Assembly: GCA_030637775.1 (NCBI GenBank)
Contig: DAOWFY010000104.1
Coordinates: 1-6,843 of the forward strand
Length of the DNA: 6,843 nucleotides
Source: DAOVGU01 sp030637775 [NCBI: bacterium]
GTDB taxonomy: Bacteria > Ratteibacteria > UBA8468
Reading direction: 5' to 3'
The stretch's first letter is position 1. Each line of letters opens with the position of its first letter. Of this stretch, positions 165 to 6,843 are shown in pieces. The position numbers and the translations under genes are program-made. Below the pieces are notes generated by a model. It had not been told where the DNA came from. It did not search any database and saw only the letters and a program-made list of their open reading frames with translations.

Positions 165-500
165 TCAAATAATTTCGTGGAGTATGTTTCTAATTAGCGA
201 TTGTACAGTAGAAGAAATATGCCCTAATTTTTTTCTAATTAATCGTTGGTCGATTGTTATCAATTTGCCAAGTTTGACTAATGATTGTTTTGGTAACCCA
301 GCAAGTTTTTGGTCTAAGGGAGATAGTAAATATTCATCTTTTTCAGTCTTGCCTGAAATATGTGATGTGATAGCAGCAAGAATTAGATCATTTCTCTTTT
401 TGTTGTACCAATTTGCTGATACAATAAGTGCTGGTCTTTGTTTGCTACCAGATAGAAGAGTCCTCTTTGTTTTCCCAGAATTTAAAAGAAGATTCCGCAA
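165..500 (-). pseudogene. MazF/PemK-family toxin, N-terminally truncated
   Basis: From about residue 16 the product matches the MazF/PemK endoribonuclease family: SGSKQRPALIV carries the conserved Arg-Pro of the active-site loop, AAITSHIS the following strand with the Thr/Ser position, and LVKLGKLITIDQRLIRKKLGHIS the typical C-terminal half with the 'K.GKi.tid..li.kklG' pattern. Family members are usually 105-120 residues and begin with a strand like 'GDIVLxPFPFTDLSGSK'. Here that strand is missing. The residues ahead of LSGSK (RNLLLNSGKTKRTL) are the antitoxin 3' end read in another frame. The only upstream start is a TTG at 500-498 with no Shine-Dalgarno site, and an in-frame TGA lies at 506-504. 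I infer a deletion that removed the toxin start, so it is probably inactive or untranslated. A +1 shift from the antitoxin frame would read into it. The catalytic region itself looks undamaged. Confidence 0.75.
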
Positions 501-636
501 GTTTCAAGAGCTCAAGATCTCCAAATTTAATTTTTAATAATTGGGGCAACTTTATGAGTAATTTCCGTTGTTTTTCAGGTTCAAATTTCTTAATTGCTCT
601 TTCAACTTCTAACAAAGATAAATTCTGTGTTCCCAT
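445..636 (-). CDS. Antitoxin of a MazF/PemK-type TA module, C-terminus altered
   Basis: This 63-residue protein starts with ATG at 636-634, preceded at 8 bases by a strong GGGAGG. It is mostly helical and charged: an N-terminal segment with LSLLEVERAIKKFEPEKQRKLLIKLPQLL (residues 6-34), then LELLKLAESSFKFWENKED (41-59). Small proteins with this 'EVERAI..F...EQR.LL..LP.LL...LAE.SF.FW.N.ED' layout are found directly upstream of MazF/PemK toxins, where they neutralise the toxin. The FWENKED motif is normally followed by a few acidic residues before the stop. Here it runs into SSIW and TAG, a sequence that belongs to the toxin gene in another frame, so the last residues were probably lost with the toxin start. 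The reading frame overlaps the toxin remnant by 56 bases. The antitoxin may still be expressed, because promoter and ribosome site are intact. I recognise the type by pattern and context only. Confidence 0.7.
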   Translation of the reverse strand: MGTQNLSLLEVERAIKKFEPEKQRKLLIKLPQLLKIKFGDLELLKLAESSFKFWENKEDSSIW

Positions 637-703: not shown

Positions 704-730
704 AGGACCCTTCACAAAGGCTCAGGGTGA
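704..730. repeat. Fragment of a dispersed intergenic repeat (CCCTTC...GCTCAGGGTGA type)
   Basis: The stretch ACCCTTCACAAAGGCTCAGG plus GTGA resembles a short repeat, roughly CCCTTCGACAAGCTCAGGGTGA, that recurs in intergenic DNA of many bacteria. It can form a weak hairpin with ACCCT (707-711) pairing with AGGGT (724-728). It ends almost at the -35 hexamer of the TA promoter. A second partial copy of the motif (GAACCCTTCG) sits at about 770-779, directly before the 781-850 element. Recognition is from memory of such repeats; copy number in this genome is not visible. Confidence 0.45.
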
Positions 731-780
731 GACTTTATGCCAGATTGCCACGGGACGGAGTTTACACTGAACCCTTCGCT

Positions 781-850
781 TGTCATTCTGAGCCAAAGGC
801 GAAGAATCTCGCTCAGGACAGGCTCCGTGAATGTGTCCCTCGCAATGACA
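781..850. repeat. Intergenic repeat element with imperfect terminal inverted repeats
   Basis: The 70-base element begins TGTCATTCTGAG (781-792) and ends CTCGCAATGACA (839-850). The ends are inverted repeats matching at 10 of 12 positions. The inside includes AAAGGCGAAGAATCTCGCTC and ACAGGCTCCGTGAA, in the style of the widely dispersed 'TGTCATTCTGAGC..AAGAATCT..CTCGCAATGACA' palindromic repeats (REP- or MITE-like). It encodes nothing itself. A 78-codon open frame from 737 runs through it, but its product is the usual low-information translation of this repeat. The rest of the gap, 851-920, shows nothing I can name. Confidence 0.6.
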
Positions 851-921
851 AAAAGCGCCAAATTGTCGTTTGATGCAAAGAAAAAGGTGTTGGGCGGGAA
901 TGCCTTGAGTGTGATTAAACC

Positions 922-990: not shown

Positions 991-2112
991 ATGACTTCTC
1001 GAGAAAGGCTTTTGGCCGCCATGAAGTGCCAACCGGTAGACAGAGTGCCAATCTATATTAGAGGATTATTTGTCTATAATGAAAAAAGGATAAAGGAGAA
1101 GGATGGCAGTTTTTTACCTTTAATAGAAGCGGTAAAAGAGGATGCTGACTATTATCAATGGTGGCCTTATGCTACCAGCTGGGAAATGTTTTTTATTGCC
1201 AGTGGGGTAAGAGTAAAAGAAGAGGAGATATGCTTATCAGATAAGCCTAAAAAGTGGATTTATCGAACTTCTATCTCTACCCCTAAAGGAGAATTGGTCC
1301 AGGAATATACCCGTCCTGAAGGTCAGCCGGGATACGTGACTAAGCACCTTATTCAGAATGAGGAAGATGCAGAAAAGGTAAAAGCAATTCCTTATCAGCC
1401 TTTAAGACCCGATGTCTCTATTTTTTTTGATTACGAGAAGAGAGTTGGGGATAAGGGTTTTATAATGACCGGTATTGATGATGCTATCGAGAGGGTCAGT
1501 ACGCTTTTAGGTTCGGAATTATTAGCTATCTGGAGTATCGAAAAGAGAAAGATTATCTTAGAGTTACTTGATATTTTTACCGAAAGGATTAAGGGGTTAG
1601 CGGATTACTTTATCACTCAAGGGGTGGGTCCAGTTTTTGATGCTGTTGGGCCAGAACAGGCACTCCCTCCTTTACAGTCCCCTGAGGATTTTGAGGATTT
1701 TGTCTTCAATTATGATAGAAAAATCATCAGATTAGTACAAGAAAAGGGGGGTATTTTCCATCTTCACTCTCACGGGAAATTAAAAGCAGTACTTAAGAAA
1801 TTTGCCGAAATGGGGATGAACTGTCTGCATCCTTTGGAATCGCCACCTATGGGTGATGTGACATTAACTGAAGGCAGGGCAATTTTAGGAGATAAGGTCT
1901 GTATTGAGGGCAACATTCAAATCGGGGATATCTTTACCGAAGAACCGGCACTATTTCGCAAGAGAGTGAAGGAAACCGTAGAAGAAGGCAAGAAAATTGA
2001 AAATTTTATTCTCTGTCCCACCGCTTCTCCTTATCTTCCGGTTCTTAATGAGACTGCTCTGTCTAATTACATTTCTATGGTTAAAATTGGTCATCAGTTA
2101 GGGACCTATTAA
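991..2112 (+). CDS. UroD-superfamily protein (methyltransferase-like, not HemE)
   Basis: The 373-residue product starts MTSRERLLAAMKCQPVDRVP, the standard opening of the uroporphyrinogen decarboxylase superfamily, which confirms the ATG at 991. The second half carries HLHSHGK (residues 257-263), then LHPLESPPMGDVTL (279-292), CIEGNIQIGDIF (304-315) and FILCPTASPY (339-348), the order expected for the barrel fold. The heme-pathway HemE signature near the N-terminus (RQAGRY-like) is absent, so this is not the heme enzyme. Superfamily members MtaA, MtbA and CmuA move methyl groups between corrinoid and acceptor using His/Cys zinc ligands. Here His257, His259, His261 and Cys342 are possible metal ligands, but the MtaA-type H-x-C is replaced by H-x-H. 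The HSHG subgroup has no established function that I know. It is first in a likely operon, 9 bases before the oxidoreductase gene. A role on methylated or sugar-derived substrates is inference. The protein is probably cytoplasmic; no signal peptide is seen. Confidence 0.85.
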   Translation: MTSRERLLAAMKCQPVDRVPIYIRGLFVYNEKRIKEKDGSFLPLIEAVKEDADYYQWWPYATSWEMFFIASGVRVKEEEICLSDKPKKWIYRTSISTPKGELVQEYTRPEGQPGYVTKHLIQNEEDAEKVKAIPYQPLRPDVSIFFDYEKRVGDKGFIMTGIDDAIERVSTLLGSELLAIWSIEKRKIILELLDIFTERIKGLADYFITQGVGPVFDAVGPEQALPPLQSPEDFEDFVFNYDRKIIRLVQEKGGIFHLHSHGKLKAVLKKFAEMGMNCLHPLESPPMGDVTLTEGRAILGDKVCIEGNIQIGDIFTEEPALFRKRVKETVEEGKKIENFILCPTASPYLPVLNETALSNYISMVKIGHQLGTY

Positions 2113-2121
2113 TTAATAAAA

Positions 2122-3135
2122 ATGTGGCGTGGTGGTATTATCGGTCTTGGGCCAAACGGAAAAGCGCATTTACAGGTTCTACTGACTTTTCCTGAGGTAA
2201 AGATAGAGGCTGTCTCTGATATAAAAAGGGAAGTAACAGAAGAGATAGAAAAGAACTTTGGAATAAGGGGTTTTTCTGATTATCGTTCTCTGTTGAAACT
2301 GAACCTTGACTTTATCTACATCTGCACCCCTAACGATTTACATCAGGAGATGGTAATAGAAACAGCGCGCTCCGGTGTAAAAGCAATCTTCTGCGAAAAG
2401 CCCATTGCTCTTACCTTAGAAGATGCGGATGAGGTGATTTCAGAAGTGAAGAAAACCAAGACGAAGGTTTTAGTTAATTATTCCTTTCCCTTTACTCCGG
2501 AGATTAAAAAAATAACGGAAATCTTTAAACAAGGAGATTTGGGAGAACTGGTCTTTTGCTGGAGTCGAAGATTTAAGGGGGCAAATTTCTTTATGCAAAA
2601 GTCTACTGGGCCCTGGATGAAGAAATCAGCCTCCTGGGGAGGCTGGCTTATTCACCATACCACCCATGATCTGGAGTGGATGTCAAGAATAGGAGGAAGG
2701 GTCAAAGAACTTTATGGTAAGACCTTTACTACTAATCCCGACCCTCTTGCGATTGAAAGTACCTGGGCGATAATAACCTTTGAGAAGGTGGGAATAGGTA
2801 TCGTGGGAGATACTCTTGATGGGATGGCCGACCAATCTATGGGTATTCAGGGAAGGAAGGGATGTATTATTTTAGACAAAGAAAATAAAGTTCGCATCAG
2901 GTCTGAAGGGATGGAAAGGTTTGAGGAACTAGAATTGGTAATTAAAGGGGAGAGGAATAAGTATCTCCTTTCTGCCCGGCATTTCCTCCGGATCATGGAA
3001 AAAGGGATTAAGCCGGTTGTAGGTCTGGAAGAAGCAAAGGAAGCTTTAAGATTGGCTTTAGCTATTAGAAGCTCTGCCCGGGAGAAAAGAATAATAAGAT
3101 TAAATGAATTTAGCGCAGAAGGGAAGCAGGGATGA
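2122..3135 (+). CDS. Gfo/Idh/MocA-family NAD(P)-dependent oxidoreductase
   Basis: The 337-residue product has the two-domain family layout. The N-terminal Rossmann fold shows GLGPNG (G8, G10, G13), Asp33 at the end of the second strand (favouring NAD over NADP), FIYICTPNDLH (64-74) and the hallmark CEKP (91-94) with the probable catalytic Lys93. The C-terminal domain has GGWLIHHTTHDLEW (173-186), in which His182 fits the catalytic His of the usual 'GG...G.HDID' motif. Such enzymes oxidise or reduce sugars, inositols and sugar acids; the substrate here is unknown. The segment after the fifth strand reads VNYSFPF where many relatives have 'N.RF.P', so the usual Arg is absent. The ATG at 2122 places the glycine motif within eight residues of the start, as expected, but the ribosome site is weak (upstream AATTAATAAAA), which suggests translational coupling to the gene ending 9 bases earlier. 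A cytoplasmic location is likely. Confidence 0.9.
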   Translation: MWRGGIIGLGPNGKAHLQVLLTFPEVKIEAVSDIKREVTEEIEKNFGIRGFSDYRSLLKLNLDFIYICTPNDLHQEMVIETARSGVKAIFCEKPIALTLEDADEVISEVKKTKTKVLVNYSFPFTPEIKKITEIFKQGDLGELVFCWSRRFKGANFFMQKSTGPWMKKSASWGGWLIHHTTHDLEWMSRIGGRVKELYGKTFTTNPDPLAIESTWAIITFEKVGIGIVGDTLDGMADQSMGIQGRKGCIILDKENKVRIRSEGMERFEELELVIKGERNKYLLSARHFLRIMEKGIKPVVGLEEAKEALRLALAIRSSAREKRIIRLNEFSAEGKQG

Positions 3136-3162: not shown

Positions 3163-4092
3163 ATGAAAAAAATCATTTTTGCTTATAGTCTTTCAATCTT
3201 ATTTGTCTTATCATCTTTTGCTCTTGCCGAAGAAAAGGTTTATACCTGCTCTCGGCTGACTAAAGAGCCTGTTTTAGATGGAAGGATAGAGGAGCCCGCC
3301 TGGAAGAATATCCCGGAGGCAGGTGATTTTGTCATCTTAAAAACAGAATCACTAGCCACAAAACAGACCTCTTTTAAGATAGGATATAATGATGAAGCAA
3401 TATATATCGGGATCAAGTGTGTTGAACCGGAGATGGAAAAGATAGTAGTAAAGGATGGCCATACGGATTTCACAAACCTCTGGAATGAAAACAGTATCGA
3501 GATATTTATCTTCCCAAAAGGAACAGATAACTACTATCATTTTGTAGTCAGTTCTATTGGTTCTCGTTGGAACGGCATCGGAAAAGGTGACCCCAAAATA
3601 CCCCTGCTTAACTGGCAGGCAAAGAGTTATAAAGGAGAAGATTTCTACTCAATAGAAATAAGGATTCCCTTTGAGATTTTTTATACTGTTCCGGAAAAGG
3701 GTGAAAAATGGCGTATAAATATAGCCCGCAATAACTATACCGGCTCAAGAGAAAAATATACCTGCTGGCCGTATTTAAAGATGGGATTCCATGACCTGGA
3801 TAACTTTGGAAAGATTATCTTTCCTGAAAAAGTCCCTGACGAGAAGATAAGATCTAGTGCAGTTTCTTACTTTAGGGGGAAAATCTCTGCCAGCCTTAAA
3901 ATCCTTTCTAACTTCAAGAAAGAACTTCCCCAAAGAGAAACAGACTTTCTTATCATAAACCTTATCGAGGGAGCACCAGAAACGGCTAAATCAAATGAAT
4001 TGGAAAGAGTTGGATTTAACAGTGTTGGAAAAGGATTAAAAGTTGAGAAATGGCAAAACTTGGTGAGCATGCGGACAAAGCTGTATCAATAA
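3163..4092 (+). CDS. Secreted CBM9-like carbohydrate-binding protein
   Basis: The 309-residue product begins with a clear Sec signal peptide: MKK, then a hydrophobic core to about residue 20, and a likely cut after ALA at 20-22, before EEK. The mature part is a CBM9-like beta-sandwich: EPVLDGRIEEPAWKNI (35-50), AIYIGIKCVEPE (79-90), LWNENSIEIFIFP (106-118), FYSIEIRIPF (161-170), WRINIARN (183-190) and FGKIIFPE (215-222). Family members bind sugars or polysaccharide ends outside the cytoplasm. The canonical acidic 'W.DD..E' loop reads W-N-E-N-S-I-E here, so metal or ligand contacts may differ. About 85 further residues are helical and charged, ending WQNLVSMRTKLYQ, like a linker that would normally lead into another domain. 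The stop comes abruptly, 43 bases inside the next gene. The start is supported by the signal peptide, although only a weak GAGAT lies before it. No catalytic domain is present. Confidence 0.85.
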   Translation: MKKIIFAYSLSILFVLSSFALAEEKVYTCSRLTKEPVLDGRIEEPAWKNIPEAGDFVILKTESLATKQTSFKIGYNDEAIYIGIKCVEPEMEKIVVKDGHTDFTNLWNENSIEIFIFPKGTDNYYHFVVSSIGSRWNGIGKGDPKIPLLNWQAKSYKGEDFYSIEIRIPFEIFYTVPEKGEKWRINIARNNYTGSREKYTCWPYLKMGFHDLDNFGKIIFPEKVPDEKIRSSAVSYFRGKISASLKILSNFKKELPQRETDFLIINLIEGAPETAKSNELERVGFNSVGKGLKVEKWQNLVSMRTKLYQ

Positions 4093-6287
4093 AATTTGAG
4101 CACTTAAAGAAACCCGGGGGTCTGGCCAAGCGGCACTACAGGTTAGCCAATAGGGCGGCAAAGTATGTCCTTGCCGGGCTGGAGCGTCCATGGCCGGATT
4201 CAGATGCTATGCGTTTTGGGAAACATCCAAAAAGTGCTTCATCTGTCCAGCCTCTCAGAAATAGCGGGCATGGTCTCTGGGGCAACGCCAGAGCAGCAGT
4301 GGGTCTCGCAATACTCTCTAAAGTGGGCAGTTACGATCCATCATTAGCTGGAGGAGCTTCAAGGGAAGAAATCTGTCGCGTTGCCCAGGCGATAATAAAA
4401 TACGTTGCTCTAAGTCATTCTACGCAAGACCCTCGTTTCACCTGCGACGTAACGCAATACAGACAATTCAAGGAGTTTGGTCCCGAATGGGGATTATCAT
4501 GGCAGTCACCTGCTTATGCCGCAGAGCTTGCGCTTGGGGCCTGGCTTCTCTGGGAGCACCTTTCCCCAGATGTGCGAACTGTTGTAAACAACATTCTTAC
4601 CGCTGAGGTAGAGTTCAATCTGGATCGGCCTACCTATCTGAAGATGCCCGGTCGGTGTAATTGCGATCCCAATGTCTGGACAGGCCTTCCAAATGCTTAT
4701 GCGGTTAATATGCTGCCTGAAGATGCCAGATGCGATACCTGGGGGGAGGATATGTTCCGCTGGATGTTTAACTCCTTTGGTCTGCCTGAAGACCTTACCT
4801 CAAACCACATTGTTGACGCTCGTCCCCTCAAGGAGCGTATGGAGTATGCAAGCTTAAACGAGGATTGCACAATGGAAAATCACGGATTCTTCCACCCTCA
4901 ATACCTGCACATTTACAACTTACTCCAGCAAGCAGCGCTTCCCTTTGGGCTCGCAGGTAATCCGATACCTGAGGTAATCGGTCTTCATCGGAAGGTAATC
5001 TTTGAGCGAATAAAAAGCCAGGTTTCCTGGGAAGGACATTTTTTCTACAGCAATGGCTTTGACTGGCGTCCTTTCGCAGGTGCTCAAGAGATGGGCGCAT
5101 GGATGCATATGTTGTATGGCGATGCCGATGGCGCTGCCCTGGAGAAAAAAGGAGTTGAATCTAAAGAGGTATCCATGAACCGTTTCAATACCGGCGCAGT
5201 GGAAAAGGATGTAGAAGATGTTGAGTCCGATGGTCATAACGTAAGTTCTTTAGGGAGTTCTGCTAAGCTTTATCTGGGTCATTGCCTGTTTTTGCCTGAG
5301 GTTAAGCCAACACCATGGGAGGAAATGAATTGCGCACAAATCAAGACTGGAGAATACCCTCATATTAAAATGCTCTACAAGCGTACGGAACGCACTTTCT
5401 GCTCCTGGAGCAGTGGTCCCCTGAGCAATTACTATATCAGGAGGGAGCAACTATCCGAGAAAGATGTGCCACGGCATGCTGTATGCGCATTAGTCACAAC
5501 CAAGGGTGCAGATTGGGTTCTGGCTCCGGGGTGTTTAAACTTGAAGGGCGAGATTGAGGCAATGCCCCTTGCTCCTCTTCCTCCGGAAGCGGAGCGATGG
5601 ACAGAGGATGTGGTCCGTTTTACCAGTGAAGTGCATGGGGAGGATTTTACCTGGATCGGGGAAGTCAAGACCAACCAGGACTGTCTTTTGCGACGCTATG
5701 CGTTTGTGACCTTGCCCAAAGATCAGGTGCTTTATGTTGAATCTTTACAGCCTCTTGTCGGTTTGCGCATCAATAAGATAGCCACCGGACAGATAAGCAT
5801 TTTCAACGAGGATGCAGGTGCTCCCTTCACAGATAATAAGGTAGAGCTCTATACAGACACGGGAAAAAACTGTATGATTGGGCATACCAAAGAAGAGAAG
5901 GCGGAAACCATTGATTTAGATAGTCGGTGGTTTAACATTGATAATATTCTTGGTCTGGTACCTTTAGCATCAAAAGGTGTGAGATATTTAGCGGAACATC
6001 GGCGCACAGGACGGGGGCTTCTGATTGATCGGCTTATCACCAACTTCAGTGAAACGCCTGTAAATGCTGCTCCCCATATTCAAGGTCAACTATCATGCTT
6101 TGGACTGTTGATTCTTCCAGGACACAGTGCAGAAGAAACAGCCAGGGTAGCATCTACGGTTCACTTCTTGCATAATACACCTCTACGATTTTCAATTTGT
6201 GTTGGCGACTGGACTGTTTCAGGCAACTGGAGTGCTAAAGCATGGAATGATGTGGCGCCACTTTCAGTACAAGTGGGAAAAAGGTAG
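4050..6287 (+). CDS. Large (alpha/alpha)-toroid, polysaccharide-lyase-like protein
   Basis: The 745-residue product has two parts. Residues 30 to about 360 are helix-rich with repeated hydrophobic helices (LWGNARAAVGLAIL, WQSPAYAAELALGAWLLWEHL) and conserved-looking blocks NEDCTMENHGFFHPQY (270-285) and FYSNGFDWRP (332-341). Residues 440-745 are strand-rich (AVCALVTTKGADWVLAPG, LLRRYAFVTLPKDQVLYVESL). A toroid followed by a beta-sandwich is the layout of heparinase II/III and PL8-type lyases, and the NHG...Y cluster (Asn277, His278, Tyr285) is reminiscent of their Asn/His/Tyr sites. The family is not one I can name, and catalysis is inference. No signal peptide is present at this start, although lyases of this type are usually exported. 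The ATG follows an in-frame TGA at 4044-4046, so no longer start exists. It has only a weak ribosome site and overlaps the CBM9 gene by 43 bases in the -1 frame. Its G+C is visibly higher than that of its neighbours. Confidence 0.75.
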   Translation: MAKLGEHADKAVSIKFEHLKKPGGLAKRHYRLANRAAKYVLAGLERPWPDSDAMRFGKHPKSASSVQPLRNSGHGLWGNARAAVGLAILSKVGSYDPSLAGGASREEICRVAQAIIKYVALSHSTQDPRFTCDVTQYRQFKEFGPEWGLSWQSPAYAAELALGAWLLWEHLSPDVRTVVNNILTAEVEFNLDRPTYLKMPGRCNCDPNVWTGLPNAYAVNMLPEDARCDTWGEDMFRWMFNSFGLPEDLTSNHIVDARPLKERMEYASLNEDCTMENHGFFHPQYLHIYNLLQQAALPFGLAGNPIPEVIGLHRKVIFERIKSQVSWEGHFFYSNGFDWRPFAGAQEMGAWMHMLYGDADGAALEKKGVESKEVSMNRFNTGAVEKDVEDVESDGHNVSSLGSSAKLYLGHCLFLPEVKPTPWEEMNCAQIKTGEYPHIKMLYKRTERTFCSWSSGPLSNYYIRREQLSEKDVPRHAVCALVTTKGADWVLAPGCLNLKGEIEAMPLAPLPPEAERWTEDVVRFTSEVHGEDFTWIGEVKTNQDCLLRRYAFVTLPKDQVLYVESLQPLVGLRINKIATGQISIFNEDAGAPFTDNKVELYTDTGKNCMIGHTKEEKAETIDLDSRWFNIDNILGLVPLASKGVRYLAEHRRTGRGLLIDRLITNFSETPVNAAPHIQGQLSCFGLLILPGHSAEETARVASTVHFLHNTPLRFSICVGDWTVSGNWSAKAWNDVAPLSVQVGKR

Positions 6288-6300
6288 TTCAAATTATTTC

Positions 6301-6307
6301 AGGAGGG
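6301..6307 (+). promoter_or_regulatory. Shine-Dalgarno site of the CBM9 lipoprotein gene
   Basis: AGGAGGG lies 4 bases before the ATG at 6312 and 13 bases after the preceding stop. It is the strongest ribosome site in the operon, which suggests this gene is translated efficiently on its own rather than by coupling. Confidence 0.75.
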
Positions 6308-6311
6308 AAAA

Positions 6312-6843
6312 ATGCAAAAGAGAAAAAATGTTTTTAGATTATTAGGAATAGCGATTATTTTGCTTTTTGGGTGCTGGACAGTCAGCAAAACAGATGCCTC
6401 AAGCTCGGGAAAGACTGGAGAAAAGGAAAAATTTCCTGCCGTATTCTGCCCTTCTCTATCTTCTGAACCCACTATTGACGGAAGGATAAAAGAAAATGAA
6501 TGGCAGAATGCTTCAAAGGTTTCTAATTTTATCCGCCTGGACGGGGGCACGGCAAAAGAGCAGACAGACGTATTTGTCGGCAGAGACAAAAACAATTTAT
6601 ACATTGCCTTTCGCTGTTACGAGCCAAGATTAAAGGACTTAAAAATCTCATGCACCGAGCATAACGGAAATATATGGCAGGACGATGATATAGAAGTATT
6701 TATAGATACTAATATGGACAGGATAACCTATTTCCAGTTTATCTCTAATCCGATAGGAGCCAAATTTGAAGGGGCCAAATTTAAAACAAGATTTGAAAGT
6801 AGCTGGAATGGCCCCTGGAGTGCTAAAGGCTTAATTAATGAAA
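6312..6843 (+). CDS. CBM9-like carbohydrate-binding lipoprotein (partial)
   Basis: The frame is open from the ATG at 6312 to the window end, giving 177 residues without a stop. The N-terminus is a lipoprotein signal: MQKRK, a hydrophobic core, and LFGC with the lipidated Cys at residue 21 (Phe at -2 is less common). A Ser/Lys-rich linker (24-40) leads into a CBM9-like domain: EPTIDGRIKENEW (52-64), NLYIAFRCYEPR (95-106), IWQDDDIEVFID (121-132) and SSWNGPWSAKG (163-173). The acidic W-Q-D-D-D-I-E loop is intact, unlike the equivalent in the gene at 3163. It is a second member of the same domain family in this operon, with the start decided by an AGGAGGG site 24 bases after the toroid gene ends. 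It is probably anchored in a membrane facing the outside and binds carbohydrate. The missing C-terminus could hold only the end of the CBM or a further domain. Confidence 0.85.
   Translation, partial: MQKRKNVFRLLGIAIILLFGCWTVSKTDASSSGKTGEKEKFPAVFCPSLSSEPTIDGRIKENEWQNASKVSNFIRLDGGTAKEQTDVFVGRDKNNLYIAFRCYEPRLKDLKISCTEHNGNIWQDDDIEVFIDTNMDRITYFQFISNPIGAKFEGAKFKTRFESSWNGPWSAKGLINE

What the first reader, a model, noticed from the sequence alone, without database searches (positions are those of the whole stretch)
4044..4095. CBM9 and toroid genes overlap in a -1 frame: split gene, fusion or recombination joint
The upstream protein has the signal peptide and ends with a linker-like helix (WQNLVSMRTKLYQ). 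The downstream protein lacks a signal peptide and begins mid-overlap with a weak ribosome site. A -1 change anywhere in 4047-4092 would give one exported CBM9-toroid protein of about 1,050 residues. I found no canonical X-XXY-YYZ slippery heptamer, so an indel (biological or in the assembly) or a joint is more likely than programmed frameshifting.
Basis: partly seen in the sequence, partly recalled or inferred. Interest (0 to 1): 0.65.

Follow-up and report, generated by a model that had tools for sequence, protein, structure and literature searches.

The report
Two separate genes overlapping by 43 bases
A gene for a secreted sugar-binding protein runs 43 bases into the start of a separate, probably laterally acquired, lyase-like enzyme gene; it is most likely an ordinary overlap left by a recombination joint, not a broken fusion gene.

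Summary
The overlap is real: CBM9 ORF 3163-4092 and toroid ORF 4050-6287 share 43 bases in a -1 relation. The split-gene/fusion reading is not supported. In 83 toroid loci (74 distinct segments) none had a CBM9 recognisable in the chain or within the fetched flanks, with a profile that finds 11 of 17 held-out CBM9s. The best BLAST relative (Halocatena) has an equally long N-terminus, 31 against 27 residues, and no evident signal peptide. The predicted fold is a whole alpha-toroid plus beta-sandwich resembling PL8 lyases.

A joint is the better reading, by inference. G+C steps up at 4112 (4038-4152). Arginine codons are foreign (AGA/AGG 12 of 41). The 14 CBM9 codons in the overlap score as badly as only 2 of 121 native gene ends. 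CBM9 most likely reads on passively into the newcomer's 5' end. No empty site is held.

Caveat: toroid relatives are not always cytoplasmic. 3 of 66 named loci, and 4 of 4 matching genomes in another phylum, have signal-peptide-like N-termini. Interest is low for the overlap, moderate for the toroid family, for which no Pfam or NCBIfam model was found.

The parts
3163..4092 (+). CBM9-domain protein, 309 aa, signal-peptide-like N-terminus, tail of about 78 residues after the domain
   Evidence: ORF; Pfam CBM9_1 E 1.8e-7; tail without Pfam match and not clearly alignable with tails of relatives
4050..6287 (+). alpha/alpha-toroid plus beta-sandwich protein, 745 aa, no signal peptide, no Pfam or NCBIfam family
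4050..4092 (+). 43-nt overlap; native-like codon score in the toroid frame (+1.69), un-native in the CBM9 frame (-2.15)
4038..4152 (.). G+C change-point (best 4112), the likely recombination joint
6312..6843 (+). second CBM9 gene, cut by the contig end, strong ribosome site (AGGAGG)
991..2112 (+). UROD/MtaA-like gene of the same run
   Evidence: PF01208 E 1.7e-16; below NCBIfam cut-offs
2122..3135 (+). Gfo/Idh/MocA-family dehydrogenase of the same run
   Evidence: PF01408 E 2.4e-24

Best explanation
Two separate proteins are made. The upstream gene makes a secreted CBM9 sugar-binding protein. The downstream gene makes a complete toroid protein, most likely a soluble cytoplasmic lyase-like enzyme, starting at ATG 4050. 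The toroid gene was most likely acquired from another lineage and joined at or near the 3' end of the CBM9 gene, about 4040-4060. CBM9 lost its own last codons or stop there and now reads passively 14 codons into the newcomer until the first stop at 4090. The overlap has no function of its own. Shown: the overlap, completeness of the toroid chain against relatives, the composition step, the atypical codons. Inferred: lateral transfer, the exact joint, the enzyme's activity and location.
For: Toroid relatives are chains without CBM9. Halocatena WP_264556860.1, the best BLAST match, aligns from the same start region (one search's smaller alignment places this stretch otherwise). G+C 0.38 to about 0.50 with change-point 4112, range 4038-4152. 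AGA/AGG 12 of 41 arginines against 0.64 expected, P 6e-6; lysine 5.1% against 9.3%, isoleucine 4.0% against 8.5%; overall codon deviation exceeded by 4 of 141 native genes. The 14 CBM9 codons before the overlap score +3.49, those inside -2.15; 2 of 121 native gene ends are as low. Residues 1-22 of the toroid have pLDDT under 50. Absent from the 3 held genomes of the same genus and family, 77-93% complete.
Against: GC3 is not extreme: 30 of 141 native genes are higher, and 10 of 141 have a lower codon score. The best second change-point, 5716 (range 5592-6316), falls inside the toroid gene, not at its end. No repeat or mobile element marks the joint, only short two-copy matches. No empty site: 1 of 35 class genomes, its own, holds this DNA, and a DNA search cannot see diverged relatives. 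Loss of an older CBM9 tail is not shown. The overlap scores low even for out-of-frame reading of native gene starts (6 of 121 as low), and a selected overlap would also have odd codons in one frame.
Confidence: 0.7

Rival explanations
1. Ordinary native same-strand overlap formed by stop loss or start gain between two resident neighbours, without recent lateral transfer; the composition difference reflects the protein's amino-acid make-up.
For: Overlaps of 40 nt or more occur in 5 of 111 adjacent pairs here. The G+C excess is larger at codon positions 1 and 2 (0.57, 0.43 against 0.48, 0.36) than at 3 (0.46 against 0.41). Stop-loss origin is a known route (PMC3887535, abstract seen).
Against: Arginine codons are strongly atypical; the 3 held genomes of the same genus and family lack the gene.
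Confidence: 0.19
2. One exported CBM9-toroid protein split by a sequencing, assembly or real frameshift.
For: CBM9 has the signal peptide, the toroid does not; one frame change would join them; toroid relatives in another phylum are exported. Co-directional overlaps over 60 bp were mostly annotation or frameshift errors in one survey (PMC2478687, abstract and section 8 seen); this one is 43.
Against: 0 of 83 loci have a CBM9 in or near the toroid by a profile that finds 11 of 17 held-out CBM9s; exported relatives bring their own signal peptide at the toroid's own N-terminus; the toroid frame starts with ATG where its coding signal starts.
Confidence: 0.05
3. Chimeric assembly: unrelated sequences joined near 4050.
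For: Single 6843-bp contig of a fragmented genome; composition step; joint DNA seen in no other held genome of the class.
Against: Composition falls back by 5592-6316 and a native-like CBM9 gene follows, so one ORF lies between native flanks; a chimera would need two false joins.
Confidence: 0.05
4. Programmed -1 frameshifting gives some CBM9-toroid fusion.
For: The -1 relation and a 46-nt stretch open in both frames.
Against: No in-phase canonical slippery heptamer in the overlap; no counterpart in relatives.
Confidence: 0.01

Closest known systems
Same-strand overlapping gene pairs (e.g. holD/rimI, 32 bp in E. coli, up to 56 bp in relatives; PMC2478687 section 8 read)
   Same: Two co-directional genes, overlap of tens of bases, different frame
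   Different: holD/rimI is conserved among relatives; no relative of this pair was found here
PL8 polysaccharide lyases (hyaluronate, chondroitin AC, xanthan lyases; the family name is recalled)
   Same: Predicted alpha-toroid plus beta-sandwich; S. pneumoniae hyaluronate lyase 1c82 Z 20.6, rmsd 5.0, 570 aligned
   Different: 9% identity; Foldseek TM-scores about 0.35-0.5 for the lyases; none of 55 members matches a lyase model in Pfam at E 0.01; no profile match to solved structures
Halocatena marina plasmid protein WP_264556860.1, 'hypothetical protein'
   Same: Best BLAST relative, 25.5% over 568 residues, own chain, no evident signal peptide; neighbours annotated as sulfatases and an endo-1,4-beta-xylanase
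   Different: Archaeal; no CBM9 named among the 9 features listed (the table is incomplete)
Long exported toroid chains of G350, G397, G398
   Same: Homologous toroid part
   Different: Own signal-peptide-like N-terminus; C-terminal FGE-sulfatase and dockerin domains, no CBM9

Membership tests
Same-strand overlapping gene pair | Two intact ORFs, each like relatives that stand alone, sharing coding bases | tested here: met
   CBM9 relatives L060 and L061 are single chains of 345 and 347 aa
Split CBM9-toroid fusion gene | Relatives carrying both domains in one chain | tested here: not met
   0 of 83 toroid loci by a CBM9 profile of limited sensitivity (11 of 17 held-out); Pfam scans of the three 1257-1306-aa relatives show no CBM9
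Programmed -1 frameshift | In-phase slippery heptamer in the shared open stretch | tested here: not met
Programmed -1 frameshift | Arrangement conserved in relatives | tested here: not met
   1 of 35 class genomes, its own
PL8 polysaccharide lyase | Alpha-toroid plus beta-sandwich fold | tested here: met
   (pLDDT 72.6, pTM 0.78); by prediction only
PL8 polysaccharide lyase | Sequence match to a lyase family profile | tested here: not met
PL8 polysaccharide lyase | Catalytic Asn/His/Tyr set (recalled, not from a call) | tested here: inconclusive
   H278 and Y285 invariant in 55 rows, N208 in 90% or more; all three invariant in 9 rows; their place in the cleft not examined
Lateral acquisition | Atypical codon use | tested here: met
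   arginine codons P 6e-6, deviation exceeded by 4 of 141 genes; but GC3 not extreme, 30 of 141 higher
Lateral acquisition | Absent from close kin | tested here: met
   0 of 3 genomes of the same genus and family, 77-93% complete
Lateral acquisition | Donor or empty site identified | tested here: not met

The most novel reading that the evidence does not exclude
The toroid gene is a deep branch of an unnamed, widespread enzyme family with a PL8-like fold, a new polysaccharide-lyase or epimerase family, acquired laterally and placed into a CBM9/UROD/Gfo-Idh sugar operon. Toroid genes beside Gfo/Idh/MocA genes in other phyla (L092, L115) fit a shared sugar pathway.
Probability: 0.35. Interest if true: 0.45.

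Novelty: new member of a known kind. Interest (0 to 1): 0.22.

Why it matters
The overlap itself teaches little: it is what a joint at the 3' end of a gene would leave behind. The by-product may matter more: a family of roughly 700-860-residue proteins in many phyla (titles name Bacillota groups, Planctomycetota, Verrucomicrobiota, Omnitrophota, Armatimonadota, Spirochaetota and others) has the predicted fold of polysaccharide lyases and no Pfam or NCBIfam model that we found, so a first activity assay could name a family.

Tried and rejected
Tail homology of CBM9: against five tails, 18 to 436 of 500 shuffles scored as high (L062c and L062b 18, L062a 54, L061 244, L060 436). Control: L060 against L061 0 of 500, but L060 against the three L062 tails 12 to 423 of 500, so the test cannot decide across this distance. 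L062b was not recognised as CBM9 by my profile and should not have been in that set. In one search the L012 row was taken in a wrong frame; one search used L062 instead.

Profile searches of the toroid against PDB sequences gave nothing meaningful (E 0.66 and 0.33). CBM9 fold from one sequence: pLDDT 38.9, not used. First genome-contig scan with the window protein alone: 34 stretches, no relative. Plasmids: two Halocatena records only. Tree: WINDOW and G026/L064 meet on two long branches (4.64, 4.55; support 95/75), so this sister relation is not trusted. Termination-reinitiation coupling: judged unlikely, as the start lies 40 nt before the stop and one study (PMC10666635, abstract seen) ties coupling to very short overlaps or distances; not tested here. 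Literature: the listings named no paper on this family; no search was made with a family name, as there is none. Papers seen as listings only, except PMC2478687 (abstract, section 8), PMC3887535 (abstract and start of introduction) and PMC10666635 (abstract).

Rows dropped: codon statistics used 141 ORFs from 19 contigs of the own genome (20 fetched, one masked and left out); one search used the 121 complete ORFs. Of 66 loci, 54 with whole ORFs went into alignment A3, with over-long N-termini trimmed to 760 residues; three long chains were cut to 760-800 residues for the tree. In at least five of the 66 loci the start of the gene is not seen (L112, L124, L132, L145, L146). My greedy ORF caller lost some toroids to antisense ORFs (e.g. 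L103, L120, L129, L137), so one search scored 65; one search repeated the fusion test by stop-to-stop frames. Several loci hold the same gene twice: 85 segments, 74 distinct. Signal peptides in relatives were judged by eye and a hydropathy score, not by a trained predictor.

Full report
What is there. The window is the whole of one 6843-base contig of a 1.4-Mb, 177-contig genome, 83.5% complete. Genes in order: UROD/MtaA-like (991-2112), Gfo/Idh/MocA-like (2122-3135), CBM9 (3163-4092), toroid (4050-6287), CBM9 cut by the contig end (6312-6843). The 43-nt overlap at 4050-4092 is real, the toroid frame is open only from 4047, and no canonical slippery heptamer lies in phase within it. For scale, 5 of 111 adjacent same-strand pairs in 19 other contigs of this genome overlap by 40 nt or more with the same simple ORF caller.

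Is the toroid a fragment of a fusion? With the window protein, 7 of 99 genomes matched, its own included; the six others are weak (E 5e-14 to 2e-4) and lie in open frames of 732-840 residues. With a nine-row profile 13 of 386 genomes matched, its own included. A subset profile found 66 loci in a collection of 84,980 species genomes. Stop-to-stop frames there do not exceed 858 residues, too short for an added CBM9 of about 300; some of the 66 are incomplete. A stop-to-stop scan of all 83 toroid loci held (85 segments, 74 distinct) gave four frames over 900: one cut by a locus end and three of 1279-1306 residues in G350, G397 and G398. All three carry FGE-sulfatase and dockerin domains at the C-terminal side and no Pfam CBM9. 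CBM9 profile hits fell only in L060-L063, loci fetched as CBM9 loci. That profile found 11 of 17 held-out CBM9 stretches, so a remote CBM9 could be missed.

The N-terminus. The Halocatena protein, best by BLAST (25.5% over 568 residues), has 31 residues before the first shared motif, the window 27; a second alignment, of seven sequences, places this stretch otherwise. Many A3 members start nearer (median 2.5 residues before the aligned column; 4 of 54 have 29 or more), so the window's N-terminus is long, not short. The predicted structure (55 rows, pLDDT 72.6, pTM 0.78) is a whole alpha-toroid followed by beta-sandwich, with residues 1-22 under pLDDT 50. Nothing is missing that a fusion would need to supply, except a signal peptide.

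Export. Signal-peptide-like N-termini are visible in L119, L120 and L126 of 66 loci, and in all four genomes that matched among 84 of the phylum of G350. Halocatena and, as far as starts can be told, the relatives in the window's own class begin without one. So relatives are separate from CBM9 in this sample but not always cytoplasmic. Exported ones bring their own signal peptide; the window's toroid has none (score 0.18 against 2.59 for CBM9), so it most likely stays in the cytoplasm.

The joint. G+C rises from about 0.38 to 0.50 with a best change-point at 4112 (4038-4152 within three log units); the best fall is at 5716 (5592-6316), inside the toroid gene rather than at its end. GC3 is only mildly high (30 of 141 native genes higher) and the codon score low (10 of 141 lower). 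Arginine codons are clearly foreign: AGA 5 and AGA/AGG 12 of 41, against 0.41 and 0.64 in 141 native ORFs (P 6e-5 and 6e-6); lysine and isoleucine are about half the native share; overall synonymous deviation is exceeded by 4 of 141. The gene is absent from the 3 held genomes of the same genus and family. Scored with this genome's codon use, the 14 CBM9 codons before the overlap give +3.49 and those in the overlap -2.15; 2 of 121 native genes end as poorly. The same bases in the toroid frame give +1.69, with 46 of 121 gene starts as low. As a further control, native gene starts read out of frame reach -2.15 or lower in 6 of 121. The reading changes hands at the toroid's start codon. I take this as a joint with CBM9 running on passively. 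It is inference: no empty site is held (1 of 35 class genomes, its own, has this DNA), and nothing but short two-copy matches surrounds the ends. Whether CBM9 lost an older tail cannot be told: tails of the close pair L060/L061 align, but not those of more distant relatives.

What the toroid protein is. By predicted fold it resembles polysaccharide lyases of the PL8 kind (1c82, Z 20.6, rmsd 5.0, 570 aligned, 9% identity), with PL17 and heparinase-type lyases and human dermatan sulfate epimerase also listed; Foldseek TM-scores for these lyases are only about 0.35-0.5. By sequence it matches no lyase family: of 55 members one matched DUF3459 (E 0.001), one a phage family (E 0.004), none a lyase, and none NCBIfam. 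H278 and Y285 are invariant in 55 rows and N208 nearly so, which recalls the Asn/His/Tyr set of PL8, from memory and untested. So: works like an alpha-toroid lyase, likely; member of PL8, no.

Surroundings. UROD, Gfo/Idh/MocA and CBM9 genes also stand together in G013:C67 (L062), and Gfo/Idh/MocA genes lie directly upstream of toroid genes in L092 (Spirochaetota) and L115 (Clostridia). This fits a shared sugar pathway, by inference.

Verdict. Split gene and fusion are not supported, a joint is likely, and the overlap is ordinary. The family behind the toroid is the more interesting lead.

Noticed in passing
window 165-500 (-) and 445-636 (-): PemK/MazF-like toxin gene (Pfam PF02452 E 2.6e-15) with a 63-aa ORF overlapping its start, without Pfam match, in the place of an antitoxin.
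   Followed up: partly
window 711-860: Apparently non-coding, G+C-richer stretch with the word GTCATTCTGAG that looks like an intergenic repeat; only one further copy of that word in 163,855 bases fetched from other contigs of this genome, so this is weak.
   Followed up: partly
window 991-3135; L062 577-5125 (-): UROD, Gfo/Idh/MocA and CBM9 genes stand together both here and in G013:C67, suggesting a conserved sugar-processing gene set.
   Followed up: partly
L088 7055-10975, L160 4012-7839, L161 274-4047: Toroid relatives of 1257-1306 residues that join toroid, FGE-sulfatase and dockerin domains in one exported chain.
   Followed up: partly
L092 3801-4895, L115 3891-4943; L128 upstream of 2077: Gfo/Idh/MocA genes directly upstream of toroid genes: L092 (Spirochaetota) and L115 (Clostridia) by Pfam, L128 (Clostridiaceae) by N-terminal sequence only.
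   Followed up: partly
L145, L146, L081/L085/L087: Toroid relatives whose frame is broken into two or more pieces, real decay or sequencing errors.
   Followed up: no
L064 6778-8445 (-): The G026 toroid relative lies next to a DUF4838 gene and a 1006-aa signal-peptide-bearing protein without Pfam match.
   Followed up: no
alignment A3, 55 proteins: A widespread protein family with PL8-like predicted fold but no Pfam or NCBIfam model found.
   Followed up: partly
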